The translations under genes were made by a program, and so were the position numbers. Below are positions 17,096 through 52,305 of a stretch of 64,000 bases of DNA, piece by piece (the first letter of the stretch is position 1; each line of letters opens with the position of its first letter). The stretch is taken from NCBI GenBank assembly GCA_003327425.1, contig QOQW01000015.1, positions 1-64,000 on the forward strand, given 5' to 3'. The notes under the pieces are model-generated. The model searched no databases. It was not told where the DNA came from and saw only the letters and a program-made list of their open reading frames with translations. This stretch comes from Candidatus Ozemibacter sibiricus. Its GTDB lineage: Bacteria > Muiribacteriota > Ozemobacteria > Ozemobacterales > Ozemobacteraceae.

Positions 17096-19366
17096 TCAGC
17101 CACCGCCGAACAGGAAGTTGACGGCATAGCTGGCCAGCAGGAATCCCCACACCAGGACGACCAGCAGCCAGACGATCATGGTCAATCGCGCGCGCTGACC
17201 TTTCGATTCCTCGTCCTGTCCAGTGAGGATGCGCTTGACGTCGACGGGCGTCCCGGTCTCTGCGGCGGCAGCACTCGACGCGCCCTGGACGGCCGGGCGA
17301 TCCCGAGCCTCCGGCGGCGCCTGGGGAGCCCGCGCCGACGCCTGCAGATCATCGGCCATGGCTTTCTCCTCATCGGCGAGCAATTGTTCGACGGTGACCG
17401 TTTTTTCGAGCGCGACGGCGAGTTTTTCCGCGATCTGGTGGACGACGGCGAGTTTGGCCGGACCGAGGAGGCGGCCGGCCGTCTTGGCTGCGCGGAAGGT
17501 TTCGCGCAACATCTCGCGGTCGGGATTGGCGGCCAGCACGACCCCCATCTTCTCGATGAGTTCGGGGGTGCTTTCCTTGACGAAGGCCACGATCAGCGCC
17601 TCGCGAATCAGCGGAAAATCGACGAGCATGGTGGCCGGCATGGCCAGTTGCCGCTGCCTGGCGCTGGGCGAGCGCAGCAAACCCTGCAGCAGGCTTTTGA
17701 TCCGTTCCCGGTCGATCGAGGAGAAGATGCGGGTGGCGGTGACCCGGATCTTGCCATTCTTGCTCTGCATGAGCTGCGGCAGATACAGGGAGAGATACTC
17801 GGAATCGAGCTTCGACAGGGCGTCAATCGCGGCGCAGACTTCGTCGGGGTTCTCGGAATTGAGGAACCGCCGGATCATGCCCGCGTCTTCGCTGGTGCCG
17901 AAGCGACCGATGGCTTTGAGGAGGGCGGCCAGTTCTTTGCCTTTGGCTTCCCGCATCAATTGCGGGATGCGCGACCGGAAGGAAGAGTATTCCGCACTGG
18001 TGAGCTTGCCGAGCAATTGTACTCGCTTGACGAAATCCAGGTTTTGGTAATCTTCGATGGCGATGACGCTGGGGACAGCCGGCGCTGCCCGCTTCTGCTG
18101 GAGAAGAGACGGAGGATCGAGGTCCGGAAGGGCTTCCAGGGCCGGAAGAGAAACCGCCTCCGGGGGAGGGGGAGGAGAAGTCGGGCCAGCCGGCCCGGTC
18201 GCTCCAGAGGCGGTGGTCGACCCAGGTGCCGGCGTGCCCAGGGGGGCTGTCCCGCTCTTTGGGCCCGGAACGGGAACAGACCCTCCAGGGGCAGAGATGA
18301 CGGTCGAGATGGGGGGGGCCGCCCCTGGCAGCCCACCATCGGGGCCCTGCTCGGACGGCGCGGAAGCGGTGTAGGTCGATTTGAGCATCCGCTCTTCTTC
18401 TCGGCGGACTCGATCCTTGAGTTGATCGAGATACTCCTGTGCGGTTCCGGTGAAGATCCCTTGTTCGCACAACGCCCGGGCCACTCCCATCAGGATCCCT
18501 TTGACCAGGTTCTGGTGCTGATCTTTGAGCTTCCGACAGATCCAGTAGAGGCGGAACGGCAGATCGGGATGCGCATGGTCCTTCATGATCTGGCTGATCC
18601 GCATCAGGAGCTTGGGATCTGAGTTCTCGGCGACGAATCGCACCAGCAGCGATTCCACTTCGGAAAAGGGGAAAAGGCTGGCATAATGCAGAGCCAGATG
18701 CTGTTCGTGATGATTGCCCGACAGGAGCATGGCCGCGAGGTTTTTGAGAGCCGCGGCCTTGTCATATCGGTACAGCGCGCGGATGGCTTGCCCCCTGATC
18801 GCCGGCAGGGGGCTGGAGAGCAACGGGGTGATCAGACTCTGCAGGTTGCTCGGATCGACCACTTCGAGGGCTTCCAGGGCGCAGGTCAGAATGGTGGGGT
18901 CGGGGTGTCGGGAAAGTTCGACCAGATGCTCGGCATCCTGCAGGTTCCCGTATTTTTTGAAGAACAGGCAGAAGGTCGGCAGGATCAGGGCCGGATATTC
19001 ATACCAACGGGCGGCTCGCAGCAGATCGACGGCCAGAATGGCCTCGGTGTGTTCGAGACAGGAAACGGCCAGGGCCAGGTCTTCCAATTTGTCTTTCTGG
19101 GGAAGCAGTTTTTCGAGGTGGTCGGCCTGGACGACGACCGGCTTGCCGCGCAACGCGAGTCCGATGCGTCGCCAGGTCTTGCGGATCTGGAAGATGAGGA
19201 TCGGGTCCTGGATCTTGACCAGGGCGGCTTCGAGGAGAGGGGGGAGGTGTTTGTTCGGCGGCAGGGCCTCGATGGCCTGGAGAGTCGCCAGGATGATGGT
19301 CCCGTCGGGGCTGGCCAGCCCGGCGGCGATCTGATTGAGCGTCAACTGGGTCTTGGGGGAAGCCAC
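17096..19366 (-). CDS. Large HEAT-repeat protein with C-terminal membrane anchor
   Basis: About 756 aa from GTG 19366; an in-frame GTG at 19384 would add six residues. Residues about 10-340 and 450-640 are helical HEAT-like hairpins (for example HPDPTILTCALEALEVV). They are separated by a Pro/Gly/Ser-rich linker (about 350-440). An acidic, Ala-rich tail is followed by a single C-terminal helix (MIVWLLVVLVWGFLLASYAV). Topology is that of a tail-anchored cytosolic scaffold. Upstream of GTG 19366 a TGTTACCAT sequence ends exactly 6 nt before the codon with no well-placed SD, suggesting a leaderless transcript. I cannot assign a specific role. The gene follows the beta-barrel gene after 73 nt. 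Confidence 0.75.
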   Translation of the reverse strand: MASPKTQLTLNQIAAGLASPDGTIILATLQAIEALPPNKHLPPLLEAALVKIQDPILIFQIRKTWRRIGLALRGKPVVVQADHLEKLLPQKDKLEDLALAVSCLEHTEAILAVDLLRAARWYEYPALILPTFCLFFKKYGNLQDAEHLVELSRHPDPTILTCALEALEVVDPSNLQSLITPLLSSPLPAIRGQAIRALYRYDKAAALKNLAAMLLSGNHHEQHLALHYASLFPFSEVESLLVRFVAENSDPKLLMRISQIMKDHAHPDLPFRLYWICRKLKDQHQNLVKGILMGVARALCEQGIFTGTAQEYLDQLKDRVRREEERMLKSTYTASAPSEQGPDGGLPGAAPPISTVISAPGGSVPVPGPKSGTAPLGTPAPGSTTASGATGPAGPTSPPPPPEAVSLPALEALPDLDPPSLLQQKRAAPAVPSVIAIEDYQNLDFVKRVQLLGKLTSAEYSSFRSRIPQLMREAKGKELAALLKAIGRFGTSEDAGMIRRFLNSENPDEVCAAIDALSKLDSEYLSLYLPQLMQSKNGKIRVTATRIFSSIDRERIKSLLQGLLRSPSARQRQLAMPATMLVDFPLIREALIVAFVKESTPELIEKMGVVLAANPDREMLRETFRAAKTAGRLLGPAKLAVVHQIAEKLAVALEKTVTVEQLLADEEKAMADDLQASARAPQAPPEARDRPAVQGASSAAAAETGTPVDVKRILTGQDEESKGQRARLTMIVWLLVVLVWGFLLASYAVNFLFGGG

Positions 19367-19372
19367 GGGAGA

Positions 19373-19378
19373 ATGGTA
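19373..19378 (-). promoter_or_regulatory. -10-like element implying a leaderless mRNA
   Basis: Minus strand TACCAT, preceded by TGT (extended -10), ends 6 nt before GTG 19366. A transcript would start at or next to the start codon. Confidence 0.35.
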
Positions 19379-46851: not shown

Positions 46852-46880
46852 TTGACAGGCCATTCACGGCTGGGTAGAGT
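46852..46880 (+). promoter_or_regulatory. Consensus promoter producing a leaderless glycosyltransferase mRNA
   Basis: TTGACA (46852-46857), 17 nt spacer, TAGAGT (46875-46880). Only GCCCCC separates the -10 from ATG 46887, so transcription should start at the A of the start codon. No SD is available. Confidence 0.65.
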
Positions 46881-46886
46881 GCCCCC

Positions 46887-47978
46887 ATGCGCATCATTCA
46901 TTCCCTTGAAGGCATTTCCTGGAGCGGCGGGCAGCAGCAAACGCTGTTTTTGTGCCAGGGCATGGTCCAGGCGGGGCACGAGGTTCTTCTTGTCTGCCCG
47001 GCCGGGAGCGTGCTGGCTCAACGAGCGGCGGCCGTCGGAGTGAGGGTGCAGCCCGTGCCCTTTCGCCGGGAACTCGATCCCGCGACCTTGCTGGGCCTGT
47101 ATCGGGTGTTCCTGGCCTTCCGCCCTGATCTGGTCAACGTCCATCGGGCCTGGGCCCACACCATGTGGGCCCTGGTGGCCCTGGTCGCCAGGTTCCGTGG
47201 CTTGATCGTCACTCGACGGGTCCTCTTCCGGCCCGATTTCAACCCCATCAGTCTGGTCAAATACCGCACCCCCGCGGTGCGAGGCTACATCGCCGTCAGC
47301 GAGGCCGTGGCCGCCCGCCTGGCCTCGCTGGGCATCCCGGGCCGCCGCGTGAAGGTGGTCTATCCGGCGACCGACACCGACCGGTTCGATCCCGACCGGG
47401 TCCCTCCCTTGCGAGAGCCTCTACCGACCCCACCCGGCGCCGTGATCGCCCTGATGATCGGGAACTACCACCCCAACAAAGGCCATCTGGTGCTGCTTGA
47501 CGCCTTCCGGCAGGTCGCGCCGCAGTGGCCCGATCTGCACCTAGTTCTGGCCGGCACCGGAACGGATGGTCCCGCGCTGCGGGAGAGGGTGACCACGGCC
47601 GGGCTGACGGGACGCGTCCACCTGCTGGGGTTCCGTGACGACGTGCCGGCGCTGATCGCCGCCAGCCGATTCACCATCAACGCCAGTTTCGAGGAAGGAC
47701 TGGCCGGCACGATCCGGGAATCCGCCGCCATGGGGGTGCCCGTGCTGGCCTCCGACAACGCTTCGAACCAGGAACTCGGTCGCCGGCTCCCTCTGGTGTT
47801 CTTCCGAACCGGCTCGGCTCCTGATCTGGCCGCAGCCCTGCTCCGGTTCCGACAGCATGCTCCGTCGCCGGCCGAGCGCCAGGCTCTGCGCCGGGCCGCC
47901 ATCGCTTCCTTTTCGGTGCCGGCCATGGTCGAGGCGACGCTGGCCGCGTATCGCGCCTTGGTGCCTGAATTGTCATGA
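46887..47978 (+). CDS. GT4-type glycosyltransferase
   Basis: 363 aa, GT-B fold. The N-terminal Rossmann domain opens MRIIHSLEGISWSGGQQQT. The donor-binding half contains LMIGNYHPNKGH, LVLAGTGTDG and LLGFRDDVPALI. The EEGLAGTIRESAAMGVPV region supplies the EX7E-type motif. It is related to lipopolysaccharide and capsule sugar transferases; donor and acceptor cannot be specified. The stop overlaps the deacetylase gene (ATGA, 47975-47978), so the two probably modify the same glycan. Predicted to be translated leaderless. Confidence 0.88.
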   Translation: MRIIHSLEGISWSGGQQQTLFLCQGMVQAGHEVLLVCPAGSVLAQRAAAVGVRVQPVPFRRELDPATLLGLYRVFLAFRPDLVNVHRAWAHTMWALVALVARFRGLIVTRRVLFRPDFNPISLVKYRTPAVRGYIAVSEAVAARLASLGIPGRRVKVVYPATDTDRFDPDRVPPLREPLPTPPGAVIALMIGNYHPNKGHLVLLDAFRQVAPQWPDLHLVLAGTGTDGPALRERVTTAGLTGRVHLLGFRDDVPALIAASRFTINASFEEGLAGTIRESAAMGVPVLASDNASNQELGRRLPLVFFRTGSAPDLAAALLRFRQHAPSPAERQALRRAAIASFSVPAMVEATLAAYRALVPELS

Positions 47979-49033
47979 CACGATCCATTCCTGTTCTCTA
48001 TTACCATCGCATCGGGGCCCCTGACCCGTTGCACTTGAGCATCCCGACCGCGCTGTTCGACCGTCAGATCGGGTTTCTGATCCGCCGTGGGTTTCGCGGC
48101 ATCACCCTGGGACAATTGCTCCGCCACCTCGCTGGAACCGCCCCGGTGAACCATCCGACCTTCGTGGTCACCTTCGACGACGGGTTCCGGGACAATCTGA
48201 CCGAGGCCTGGCCGGTGTTGCGCCGCCATCGCTGCCCGGCCACCATCTTCATGGTCGGCCGGCTGATCCGCCCGCCGGACCAACCCCCGTCGTCCATGCC
48301 GCGCGATTTCAACGCCGCCCATCGAGCGGCCTGTCAGGGTGATCTCAGCGATTTCCTGTCTCGCCAGGAAATGCAGGAAATGCATGCCAGCGGGCTGATC
48401 GAATTCCATTCCCACAGTCTTTCCCACCGACAGGTGTTCACCGGGTGTACCCTGACCGGCGTCTACCCCGACACGGACGCCCACTGGGGAGTGCTTTCGG
48501 CGTATGGGGCGGGTCTGCCCGAGCGGTCCTGGCCCGTTTTTCCAAGAGCCCCCGGGCTGACCGCCCCTGCCTGGGAACCCGATCTTGGGCGCCTGCAGGC
48601 CGCCGGCCGCGACTGGTCGCGCGAATGGCAGGAATGGCAGGCCGGGCGGGGCAAGACGGTGCCAGCCGTGCCGGCCGAGTGGTTCCGGATCGAGTCGACC
48701 GCCGCCTATGAGCGGCGCGTCCGCGAGGAACTGGCGGCCTCGCGTGCGTTGTTCCAGGGCTTCCATGAACCCGGCACCGACCTGATCTGCTGGCCCTGGG
48801 GGGCCTTCACCCCCGCCGTCGTCCAGTGGGCCAGGGAAGAAGGCTACCACGGGGCGTTGACGACGGCTTCCGGGCCGACCCTGCCCGGCGGGGATCCGTT
48901 CGCCATTCCGCGCTACCCGGTCAAAAAAGGGGATCTGGCCCGCTTCGCCCTGGGGATCTGGCTGCGCACGTCGCCGACCCTGGCGCGGGTCTATGGGGTC
49001 ATCCGACGCTGGGGCCGTCCCCGGGGAACCTGA
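47975..49033 (+). CDS. NodB-type polysaccharide deacetylase
   Basis: 352 aa. The start YYHRIG and the motif VVTFDDGF (the first catalytic Asp pair) are followed by FHSHSLSH, the metal-binding His motif, in the carbohydrate esterase 4 fold. An insertion of about 90 residues, Trp- and Arg-rich, lies between the His motif and the C-terminal barrel part CWPWGAFT. It probably removes acetyl groups from an N-acetylated polysaccharide. No signal peptide is evident, so it either acts in the cytosol or starts elsewhere. It shares a translational junction with the glycosyltransferase. Confidence 0.85.
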   Translation: MTRSIPVLYYHRIGAPDPLHLSIPTALFDRQIGFLIRRGFRGITLGQLLRHLAGTAPVNHPTFVVTFDDGFRDNLTEAWPVLRRHRCPATIFMVGRLIRPPDQPPSSMPRDFNAAHRAACQGDLSDFLSRQEMQEMHASGLIEFHSHSLSHRQVFTGCTLTGVYPDTDAHWGVLSAYGAGLPERSWPVFPRAPGLTAPAWEPDLGRLQAAGRDWSREWQEWQAGRGKTVPAVPAEWFRIESTAAYERRVREELAASRALFQGFHEPGTDLICWPWGAFTPAVVQWAREEGYHGALTTASGPTLPGGDPFAIPRYPVKKGDLARFALGIWLRTSPTLARVYGVIRRWGRPRGT

Positions 49034-49183
49034 CCGCCGCCCCCACCTCCCACGTTGCAGGCGGGCTCAGGCCGGGGCAGGGAAACCCAGGCGGGCAAAG
49101 GAGGAAAGGCCGATCAAAAGCAGTCCCCTGGTTCCTGGATTCTTCTGCTCCCGCCAGGGCACTCTCCCTTCCGGGGGGTAGTA

Positions 49184-49192
49184 TGCTATAAT
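49184..49192 (+). promoter_or_regulatory. Extended -10 promoter giving a leaderless TPR mRNA
   Basis: TG-C-TATAAT is a perfect extended -10, with no clear -35. AGTCCT then separates it from ATG 49199, 6 nt in all, so the transcript begins at the start codon. The sequence just upstream is the motif also found at 52332. Confidence 0.65.
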
Positions 49193-49198
49193 AGTCCT

Positions 49199-50032
49199 AT
49201 GGGTCCTACTCCCGAGGAAATCATCAAGAAAGCCCAGAAAGCCCTCAAAGACGGGAAGAATACCCCCAGCGCCCTGACCGCCCTGGGCATGGCCTATTTC
49301 GAAAAGGGTCTGCTCGACAAATCCGCCTATTACTATCAGAAAGCCCTCGAACACGACCCGGATTTCGCACCGGCCTTCGCCGGCCTGGGCATCGTCTACG
49401 GAAAGAAGGGCCGGGTGACCGAATCGATCTTCAATCTCAAAGAGGCCATCCGCCTCGCTCCGGGCTGCGCCATTCTGTACAACTGGCTGGCCGATGCCTA
49501 CTTCGACCAGGGCCGGTTCGAAGACGCCATTCGTGAATATGGCCGGGCGACCCAGCTCGATTCGCTCGATGCCAACGCGCACAACGACCTGGCCGACGCC
49601 TACCGCCTGACCGGCGATCTGCAGCGAGCGCTCGAACACTACCAGGAAACGCTCCGCATCGATCCTCGCGATACCAACGCCCAGCTCGAGCTGGCCCAGG
49701 TGCTGGTCCAACTGGGACGACGCGACGAAGCGCGCCAGCGGCTGCTCGACCTCGTGCGCAACCACCCTGACACCGACGATGCCAAGACCGCCAAGGTCGT
49801 TCTGGGCACCATGGGGGTACAGGACGGCGACTTCATGTCAGCGCGCGATTTCTTCCTGCAAGCGGCCCGCGACTATCCCTTCAATCCGTCCATCCAGATC
49901 CAGCTCGGACTCTGCTACCTCGTTCTGGGCGAGACCGAAACCGCCTCTGAGCATCTGCAACGGGCCCATGATCTCGATCCCGACAATCCCCGCATCCGGC
50001 GCCTGCTGCAACAGATCGGGAAGAAGCGATGA
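49199..50032 (+). CDS. TPR-repeat protein
   Basis: 277 aa from ATG 49199. The frame is open upstream, but a TATAAT lies inside that part and no SD exists. About seven tetratricopeptide hairpins cover nearly the whole length (pattern ALTALGMAYFEKGLLDKSAY, then SALEHDPDFAP-like turns). No signal peptide or membrane helix. It is likely a cytosolic assembly or docking factor. The stop overlaps the next gene, a prepilin-like protein (ATGA), suggesting a PilF-like or chaperone role in a pilus-type machine. That role is inference. Confidence 0.85.
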   Translation: MGPTPEEIIKKAQKALKDGKNTPSALTALGMAYFEKGLLDKSAYYYQKALEHDPDFAPAFAGLGIVYGKKGRVTESIFNLKEAIRLAPGCAILYNWLADAYFDQGRFEDAIREYGRATQLDSLDANAHNDLADAYRLTGDLQRALEHYQETLRIDPRDTNAQLELAQVLVQLGRRDEARQRLLDLVRNHPDTDDAKTAKVVLGTMGVQDGDFMSARDFFLQAARDYPFNPSIQIQLGLCYLVLGETETASEHLQRAHDLDPDNPRIRRLLQQIGKKR

Positions 50033-52305
50033 AAGCCGGCGGGGGCGCACGAGCGGCCAACCGCCGCGGCATGGTCCTGGTGCTGGTGGTCGGGTGTCTC
50101 GTCTTCACCATGCTGATCTTCAAGAGCATGGTCACCCGCTTGCGCCAGGAAAACGTCCTGACCAATCGCACCTCGGTCAATGAACGCCTCTACCAGATCG
50201 CCTCCGCCATCGGGCGACTGACCATCCGCAAGCTGCAACGCGATATCGAGACCCGCGAACCCGCCGTCGCCAAGAAGATCCTCGATGCGGTCTTCGTCAA
50301 CACCCGGGAACGGATCGACGACTTGTACAAATCCAGCGACATCGTCGACCTCGATGTCGTCAAGGAGATCATCACCCAATTCAAGAGCCGCTGGGGCGAC
50401 CTGACCGTCGAGGTCGAGACGGGGGCGACCATCGGCAAAGATTCCCCCTTCGCCCCGGAATTCCGCGGCCTGGAGAAATCGCCGTTCGAACGGCGCGGGT
50501 CGATCGACATCGACGTGATCGTCGAGCATCGGGGCTTCCGCAAGAGTTGTCGCATCCGCAAGGAATTCCTGCTGACCCGGCTGTTCGCCCCCCCCTTCCA
50601 TAAATTCACCCTTTTCGCCCGCCGCGGCGCGGAAGTCGAGGAGGAGAAGGTCAACCGCCTGGACAAGATGGACGAAGATGGCAAGGTGACGGGCGGCGCC
50701 CCGCCGTTGGTGCTGTTCAACCGCCTGTTGCGCGACAAGCGTCCCAACCAGAACGGCCTCGATTTCACGCTCAATCAGCCCGACCACATCGTCAAAGATA
50801 CCGCCGCCCTGACCCAGAACGGCTGGGTGTACCTGGGCGGCACCGGAAAGTCGACCGACGCCGCCAACAAATCAGGCAACCTGATGCTGAACATCTGCGC
50901 CGGCGCTGAAAAAGACATCACCAAGAACTATTTCGGGGAATACTTCCATTTCTTCTTCGACCCGCCCACCAAGGGCTGGCTGGGGTCGAAGCAATGGAAC
51001 CAATGGATGGACAGCAAGATCCCCAACAACAACCGAGGGGGAGGCAACCACGAAATCCAGGTGACCTTCGTCGATTACGGCATCTACCCGGGGTTGAAAG
51101 ATCTGGCCTTCAACGGCATTCCCTTGTTCGCCCAGGCCATCGGCAGCTATCGCGGCCGGAAAGACCTGCTCACCAAAGGCAATGCCCTCCATTTGTTCGG
51201 CACGCCCTCGCTCTGCACTCCGACCCTGGTGTTCGGCCAGGTCAAGCGTCGCTATGTGCGCACCTTCGCCTTCTACTTCAGCCGGGCCCAGCGGGTCTTT
51301 CCGATCCGCGCCATGACGGAGTCCGAATACGATTTCTATTTCCCCAATGAGATCGCGCCCTGGGCCACCAACCGCGGCATCGACCAGACCCTCCAGGATG
51401 CCCTGGGCCGGGCGATCGCCAAGACCAGCCTTCCCTACAATACCTACTGGTACGGCGATCGCAACAACAACCCACCCTTGTGCCGCCTCCCTCCTGAATT
51501 CCGCGACTGGGAACCCTATATGGCCGGCCTCAAGAACATCGTCAAACCCACCGACCCCGCTCTGTCGTGGAATGCAGCCATTCCGCGGAACATCTACTGC
51601 CCCGACAAACCCGATACGCTCTGCACACCCGACTTTCCCTTCAACAACGATCCCGAAATCCACTATACCGGCAAACTGAGCGACCTGCGCGGGAACGCCG
51701 CCTACCTCAAGGACCGGATGAGCTATTACATCACCGAATGCAAACCCGGGCAGGTGCTCAAATTGAGCAAATGCCAGTTCTTCATGGACCATTTCGTCGA
51801 TCGGACCTCCGGGCGGAACCAGGTGTTCCTGAACCAGATCATCGGGTTCAACGGGGACATCGAGGTCGACATCCCGCTGGAAGTGCTGAAGGGAGGCGTC
51901 ATCTACGCCAAAGGCGCCATCCGGATCACCCAGCCCGTGACCAACCCCTTCATTGCCAATCCGCCCACCACTCCAGACGCCTTCGGCTACCTGACGTTCG
52001 TTTCCGATTCGGTGATCTCCTTGCAATTGGGGGGCGGCAGCTCGTCGGGCGGGGGCCTGCCGCAGTTCCATGGCTTCCTGGTCTGCCTGCGCGCCGACGA
52101 GACCGGTCAGATCGATGTGGCGGGCCCGGTGCACATCATCGGCGGCGTCGCCGTCGATCGCATCGACACCCTTCTGGAGAAAGGCGGCATCATCGAATAC
52201 GGCTTCGAGCAATCTGAACTGGGCGGGATGAAAGACATCACCAACCGCGATTTCTACGGACTGGTCATGGGCCCGCGCGATATGGAAATGGTCGTCGAGG
52301 ATTGA
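50029..52305 (+). CDS. Large PilX-like exported protein with prepilin-type N-terminus
   Basis: 758 aa. The N-terminus RRGMVLVLVVGCLVFTMLIF resembles a PilX/GspK-type prepilin leader: basic residues, Gly, then a hydrophobic helix, although the residue at +5 is not Glu. The mature part is large, polar and rich in Asn, Tyr and Phe, with four Cys in the middle. The last 150 residues look beta-solenoid-like (GGVIYAKGAIRITQPV). Far bigger than normal minor pilins (150-350 aa). It overlaps the TPR gene upstream by ATGA and is followed by an ECF sigma gene. It may be a tip adhesin or minor subunit. Confidence 0.7.
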   Translation: MKAGGGARAANRRGMVLVLVVGCLVFTMLIFKSMVTRLRQENVLTNRTSVNERLYQIASAIGRLTIRKLQRDIETREPAVAKKILDAVFVNTRERIDDLYKSSDIVDLDVVKEIITQFKSRWGDLTVEVETGATIGKDSPFAPEFRGLEKSPFERRGSIDIDVIVEHRGFRKSCRIRKEFLLTRLFAPPFHKFTLFARRGAEVEEEKVNRLDKMDEDGKVTGGAPPLVLFNRLLRDKRPNQNGLDFTLNQPDHIVKDTAALTQNGWVYLGGTGKSTDAANKSGNLMLNICAGAEKDITKNYFGEYFHFFFDPPTKGWLGSKQWNQWMDSKIPNNNRGGGNHEIQVTFVDYGIYPGLKDLAFNGIPLFAQAIGSYRGRKDLLTKGNALHLFGTPSLCTPTLVFGQVKRRYVRTFAFYFSRAQRVFPIRAMTESEYDFYFPNEIAPWATNRGIDQTLQDALGRAIAKTSLPYNTYWYGDRNNNPPLCRLPPEFRDWEPYMAGLKNIVKPTDPALSWNAAIPRNIYCPDKPDTLCTPDFPFNNDPEIHYTGKLSDLRGNAAYLKDRMSYYITECKPGQVLKLSKCQFFMDHFVDRTSGRNQVFLNQIIGFNGDIEVDIPLEVLKGGVIYAKGAIRITQPVTNPFIANPPTTPDAFGYLTFVSDSVISLQLGGGSSSGGGLPQFHGFLVCLRADETGQIDVAGPVHIIGGVAVDRIDTLLEKGGIIEYGFEQSELGGMKDITNRDFYGLVMGPRDMEMVVED

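What the first reader, a model, noticed from the sequence alone, without database searches (positions are those of the whole stretch)
46852..49201. Leaderless mRNAs with an identical 6-nt gap from -10 to start codon
At 46880 to 46887 (TAGAGT, 6 nt, ATG) and 49192 to 49199 (TATAAT, 6 nt, ATG) the -10 box is followed after exactly 6 nt by the start codon, with no SD. A third case at 19378-19366 (TACCAT, 6 nt, GTG) looks the same. This spacing places the 5' end at the start codon. Other genes in the window use ordinary SD leaders, so two initiation modes coexist.
Basis: partly seen in the sequence, partly recalled or inferred. Interest (0 to 1): 0.6.

Follow-up and report, generated by a model that had tools for sequence, protein, structure and literature searches.

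The report
Genes with no mRNA leader
Three genes here, like a small share of genes in this little-studied group of bacteria, appear to be read from messages that begin right at the start codon, a mode already well known from many other bacteria.

Summary
All three starts have a -10-like box ending exactly 6 nt before the start codon and no Shine-Dalgarno (SD) sequence: 46875-46880/ATG 46887 (TTGACA 17 bp upstream), 49187-49192/ATG 49199 (extended -10, TGcTATAAT) and, minus strand, 19378-19373/GTG 19366. The genome belongs to Riflebacteria, family Ozemobacteraceae.

TANNNT at 6 nt is in excess genome-wide: 12 of 601 genes outside the window and outside three stretches chosen for matches, against 1.8 in shuffles; it nearly excludes SD (1 of 12 against 285 of 589). 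The architecture is conserved: TPR gene in 17 of 17 family orthologs, gap 6-8 nt; GT and HEAT genes in 3 of 3 same-genus genomes each. More distant GT and HEAT orthologs often carry SD instead.

So these are very probably leaderless genes in a genome that also uses SD starts. This is the known 'TANNNT about 12 bp upstream' class (Zheng 2011, PMC3160421), in a phylum for which I found no such report. The gap is not strictly 6 across species. No transcript data were available.

The parts
46852..46857 (+). -35 hexamer TTGACA of the glycosyltransferase promoter
   Evidence: Read; same hexamer at the same 17-bp spacing in both other genomes of the genus (L035, L036) and in L038
46875..46880 (+). 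-10 box TAGAGT, ending 6 nt before ATG; its TAG is an in-frame stop
   Evidence: TAGAGT at gap 6 in 3 of 3 same-genus orthologs
46887..47978 (+). Putatively leaderless gene: family 4 glycosyltransferase, 363 aa
   Evidence: Pfam Glyco_trans_1_4 and Glyco_transf_4; N-terminus conserved from codon 1 in 9 of 9 orthologs
49184..49192 (+). Extended -10 element TGcTATAAT, ending 6 nt before ATG
   Evidence: TG-n-TATAAT-type element in family orthologs: TATAAT in 16 of 17, TATACT in 1, T of the TG in 17 and G in 15
49199..50032 (+). Putatively leaderless gene: TPR-repeat protein, 277 aa
   Evidence: Pfam TPR families; promoter 6-8 nt before ATG in 17 of 17 family orthologs
19373..19378 (-). -10-like box TACCAT, ending 6 nt before GTG
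   Evidence: TACCAT at gap 6 before GTG in 3 of 3 same-genus orthologs
17096..19366 (-). Putatively leaderless gene with GTG start: HEAT-repeat protein, 756 aa
   Evidence: Pfam HEAT_2; start chosen by codon usage alone and kept in the genus

Best explanation
[quoted passage not shown] A ribosome, by analogy with other bacteria as a 70S particle, then starts at the 5'-terminal AUG or GUG without SD pairing. Shown here: the anatomy, the genome-wide excess at this spacing, SD depletion, head-of-unit placement and cross-species conservation. Inferred: the actual 5' ends and the ribosome mechanism.
For: Positional excess at gap 6. SD in 1 of 17 such genes against 318 of 673 others, Fisher P 7e-4. 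Same-strand neighbour within 50 nt upstream in 1 of 16 against 231 of 623, P 0.015. TPR gene promoter kept in 17 of 17 family orthologs; GT and HEAT promoters kept in 3 of 3 same-genus genomes each. Over 39 phylum genomes the full pattern gives 94, 271, 151 and 111 matches at gaps 3, 6, 8 and 12. Preference for starting 7 bp after the -10 element: PMC5730371 (passages).
Against: No RNA data. Gaps of 7-8 in 13 of 17 TPR orthologs allow leaders of one or two bases. The HEAT box TACCAT has no recognisable -35 and starts at GTG, which works poorly on leaderless mRNAs in E. coli, though well in some actinobacteria (PMC9031893, passages). The share is small, about 2% of genes, so single cases can be chance: about 2 of 12 are expected by shuffling.
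Confidence: 0.88

Rival explanations
1. The boxes are chance matches; the real promoters lie further upstream and the mRNAs have leaders without SD, started by another non-SD route.
For: TANNNT is a loose motif, and about half of the genes lack an SD-like tetramer anyway. The HEAT box stands alone without a -35.
Against: Excess at one gap only and conservation of box and gap in orthologs while most other upstream columns vary.
Confidence: 0.08
2. The promoters are real but the stated starts are wrong: translation starts downstream, after a leader with its own ribosome site.
For: Start calls are computational; a promoter can lie inside an overlong ORF call.
Against: The protein sequence is conserved from the first codon in GT and TPR orthologs, including GT orthologs whose SD points at the same codon (L039, L040, L042). 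Codon usage alone picks these starts.
Confidence: 0.04

Closest known systems
TA-led (leaderless) genes of bacteria, Zheng et al. 2011, PMC3160421 (abstract, passages and section 7 seen)
   Same: TANNNT with its first T about 12 bp before the start codon, loose middle positions at high G+C, SD genes beside them, orthologs that change mode
   Different: Riflebacteria is not among the groups listed there; the share here, about 2% of genes, is far below the 20-40% of Actinobacteria and Deinococcus-Thermus
Leaderless mRNAs of Caulobacter crescentus, PMC4117421 (passages seen)
   Same: Leaderless and leadered mRNAs coexist in one genome
   Different: There 375 were mapped experimentally (9.6% of coding sequences); here the evidence is sequence only
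Leaderless transcripts of Mycobacterium tuberculosis, PMC3898074 and PMC4633059 (search listing only)
   Same: Leaderless transcripts beside SD ones, by their titles and abstract beginnings
   Different: Transcript and ribosome data exist there; distant phylum

Membership tests
Bacterial leaderless (TA-led) genes | -10 element placed about 12 bp (first T) upstream of the start codon | tested here: met
   Three of three sites; genome-wide excess at this position
Bacterial leaderless (TA-led) genes | No SD sequence before the start | tested here: met
   None at the three sites; 1 of 17 in the set against 318 of 673 others
Bacterial leaderless (TA-led) genes | First gene of its transcription unit | tested here: met
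   Upstream neighbour divergent, or 72 and 165 nt away, for the three (the strand label of the minus-strand HEAT gene and its neighbour is the same); set as a whole 1 of 16 within 50 nt
Bacterial leaderless (TA-led) genes | Arrangement kept in orthologs | tested here: met
   TPR 17 of 17 in the family, GT 3 of 3 and HEAT 3 of 3 in the genus; mostly not kept beyond the genus for GT and HEAT
[quoted passage not shown]
Bacterial leaderless (TA-led) genes | Translation of the leaderless mRNA | not testable with these tools
   Needs ribosome profiling, reporters or N-terminal peptides

The most novel reading that the evidence does not exclude
In Riflebacteria the leaderless state is a selected property of particular genes: the TPR gene has stayed leaderless across the family while its neighbour, the glycosyltransferase gene, switched between leaderless and SD starts at the same codon. 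Such genes might be favoured together when SD initiation is impaired.
Probability: 0.15. Interest if true: 0.5.

Novelty: new member of a known kind. Interest (0 to 1): 0.25.

Why it matters
It adds a phylum of mostly uncultured bacteria to those with leaderless genes, gives a worked case of genes switching between leaderless and SD starts at a conserved start codon, and warns that gene callers that rely on SD may misplace a small share of starts in these genomes. It does not change what is known about translation.

Tried and rejected
Tried: Rfam scan of the window, no match at gathering scores. 16S rRNA: one gene, whose 3' end carries the usual anti-SD sequence, so loss of SD pairing by the ribosome is rejected as a reason. 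A plasmid search with a stretch mostly outside the 16S gene gave only scraps. The TATAAT-gap-ATG list was cut by the tool (129 matches counted, not all listed), so I made no gap histogram from it. Papers holding both 'leaderless' and 'Riflebacteria': 0; 'Riflebacteria' or 'Ozemobacter': 43 papers, 12 listed, none on translation by title. That I know of no report for this phylum rests on these two searches of an open-licence library. A functional theme was looked for in 18 further genes with this promoter (Pfam): mixed functions; only three STAS genes recur.

Rows and cautions: the sample included the window and three stretches (L016, L017, L025) that I had chosen because they held matches; one search repeats the count without them. 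One of 691 called genes lacked 60 nt upstream and was dropped; one of the 17 genes and 50 of the others lay at stretch edges and were left out of the neighbour test. In one search minus-strand loci were read in the wrong orientation; one search replaces it. In one search the -10 box was located by looking for TATA[AC]T close to the start, so its six columns are partly selected for; the TG before it was not. Orthologs are the best match per genome among the loci returned; genomes without a close match are not in those counts.

Full report
What was checked. TTGACA at 46852, 17 bp, TAGAGT ending at 46880, six bases, ATG at 46887; TGcTATAAT ending at 49192, six bases, ATG at 49199; on the minus strand TACCAT ending at 19373, six bases, GTG at 19366. 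The products are a family 4 glycosyltransferase, a TPR protein and a HEAT-repeat protein. A simple gene caller using codon statistics only, blind to upstream sequence, chose exactly these starts. In the first case the TAG of the -10 box is itself an in-frame stop 12 nt before the ATG, so no upstream start is possible.

Where it is from. Eight named relatives of the glycosyltransferase gene were found; five or more are labelled Candidatus Ozemobacteraceae or Candidatus Riflebacteria, and two carry other labels. The held genome has 5.68 Mb in 58 contigs; the sampled part has 64.4% G+C. Its 16S rRNA ends with the usual anti-SD sequence.

Is it more than chance. In 601 genes from 57 stretches, outside the window and outside three stretches that I had picked for their matches, TANNNT stands 6 nt before the start in 12, against 1.8 in dinucleotide shuffles (highest of 500: 9); gaps 5, 7 and 8 have 0, 1 and 5. 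In the full sample it is 17 of 690 against 2.4. In the whole genome the full promoter pattern with gap 6 occurs 10 times and its reversed control never; over gaps 0-30 the gap of 6 has 10 of 62 listed matches, the next commonest 5. Of those 10 places I read 8, and all 8 open a reading frame of at least 116 codons. The signal is real but small: about 2% of genes (12 less 1.8 in 601).

Does it look leaderless. Genes with this box nearly lack SD tetramers (1 of 17 against 318 of 673) and rarely follow a same-strand gene within 50 nt (1 of 16 against 231 of 623). RNA polymerase prefers to start 7 bp after the -10 element and rarely more than 2 bp beyond or 1 bp before that (PMC5730371, passages). 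[quoted passage not shown] gaps 7 and 8 put it one or two bases before, with the start codon still within the usual range.

Conservation. The TPR gene keeps an extended -10 element before its ATG in 17 of 17 family orthologs, with gaps of 6, 7 and 8 nt in 4, 5 and 8 of them, while most other upstream columns vary. The glycosyltransferase gene has TTGACA-N17-TAGAGT-N6-ATG in 3 of 3 genomes of the genus and TTGACA-N17-TAGGAT-N8-ATG in one further genus; of the other five orthologs three have a strong SD (AGGAG), one a weak AGGA and one neither. The HEAT gene has TACCAT-N6-GTG in 3 of 3 of the genus; of 12 other orthologs two have a box at 6 or 7 nt, four have an AGAGG SD, one a weak AAGG, one an uncertain start, and four neither signal. 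So one gene stays leaderless-type through the family, and two change mode while the start position is kept. The glycosyltransferase and TPR genes lie close together, in the same order, in at least G016, G012, G010, G006 and G025 (coordinates).

Spread in the phylum. Over 39 genomes TTGACA-N16-18-TANNNT-gap-ATG gives 94, 271, 151 and 111 matches for gaps of 3, 6, 8 and 12. Gap 6 exceeds gap 3 in 33 genomes, falls below it in 3 and equals it in 3. The reversed control for gap 6 gives 44. The three genomes of family f5 show almost none (0-1 each).

What is known. Zheng et al. 2011 (PMC3160421; abstract, passages and section 7) describe this signal, TANNNT about 12 bp before the start, as the mark of leaderless genes, found in 207 of 953 bacterial genomes, with loose middle positions in high-GC groups and with changes of mode between orthologs. 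PMC9581028 (passages) cites predicted leaderless transcription in 21.6% of bacterial species. Caulobacter has 375 mapped cases (PMC4117421, passages). PMC9031893 (passages) reviews the 70S route and the weakness of GUG in E. coli. Riflebacteria is not among the groups that Zheng lists, and no paper in the library held both words.

Verdict. The finding is an ordinary instance of a well-known mode, in a phylum for which I found no description of it. What remains unproved is the 5' end itself.

Noticed in passing
L005:1537-1890, L007 (same gene as L154:17582-17935), L008:1156-1503: Three STAS-domain (anti-sigma-antagonist type) genes all carry TTGACA-N17/18-TANNNT-N6-ATG promoters; two lie near HEAT-repeat genes.
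   Followed up: partly
L165:13981-16518: A gene for a major-vault-protein-like protein (MVP_shoulder, E 1.3e-28) has TATAAT 6 nt before its ATG.
   Followed up: no
G000 contigs C28:65257, C52:167249, C54:55231: One identical 44-nt promoter-like string ending in ATG occurs three times, probably part of a repeated mobile element.
   Followed up: no
L071-L075, L077, L079, L080 upstream of the TPR gene: Family members outside the genus share a stretch like AAAATAtCTgCTGyCAG, about 17 bp or a little more before the -10 element, perhaps a -35 with an activator or A-rich site.
   Followed up: no
window 50029-52305: The 758-aa gene after the TPR gene has no Pfam match.
   Followed up: no
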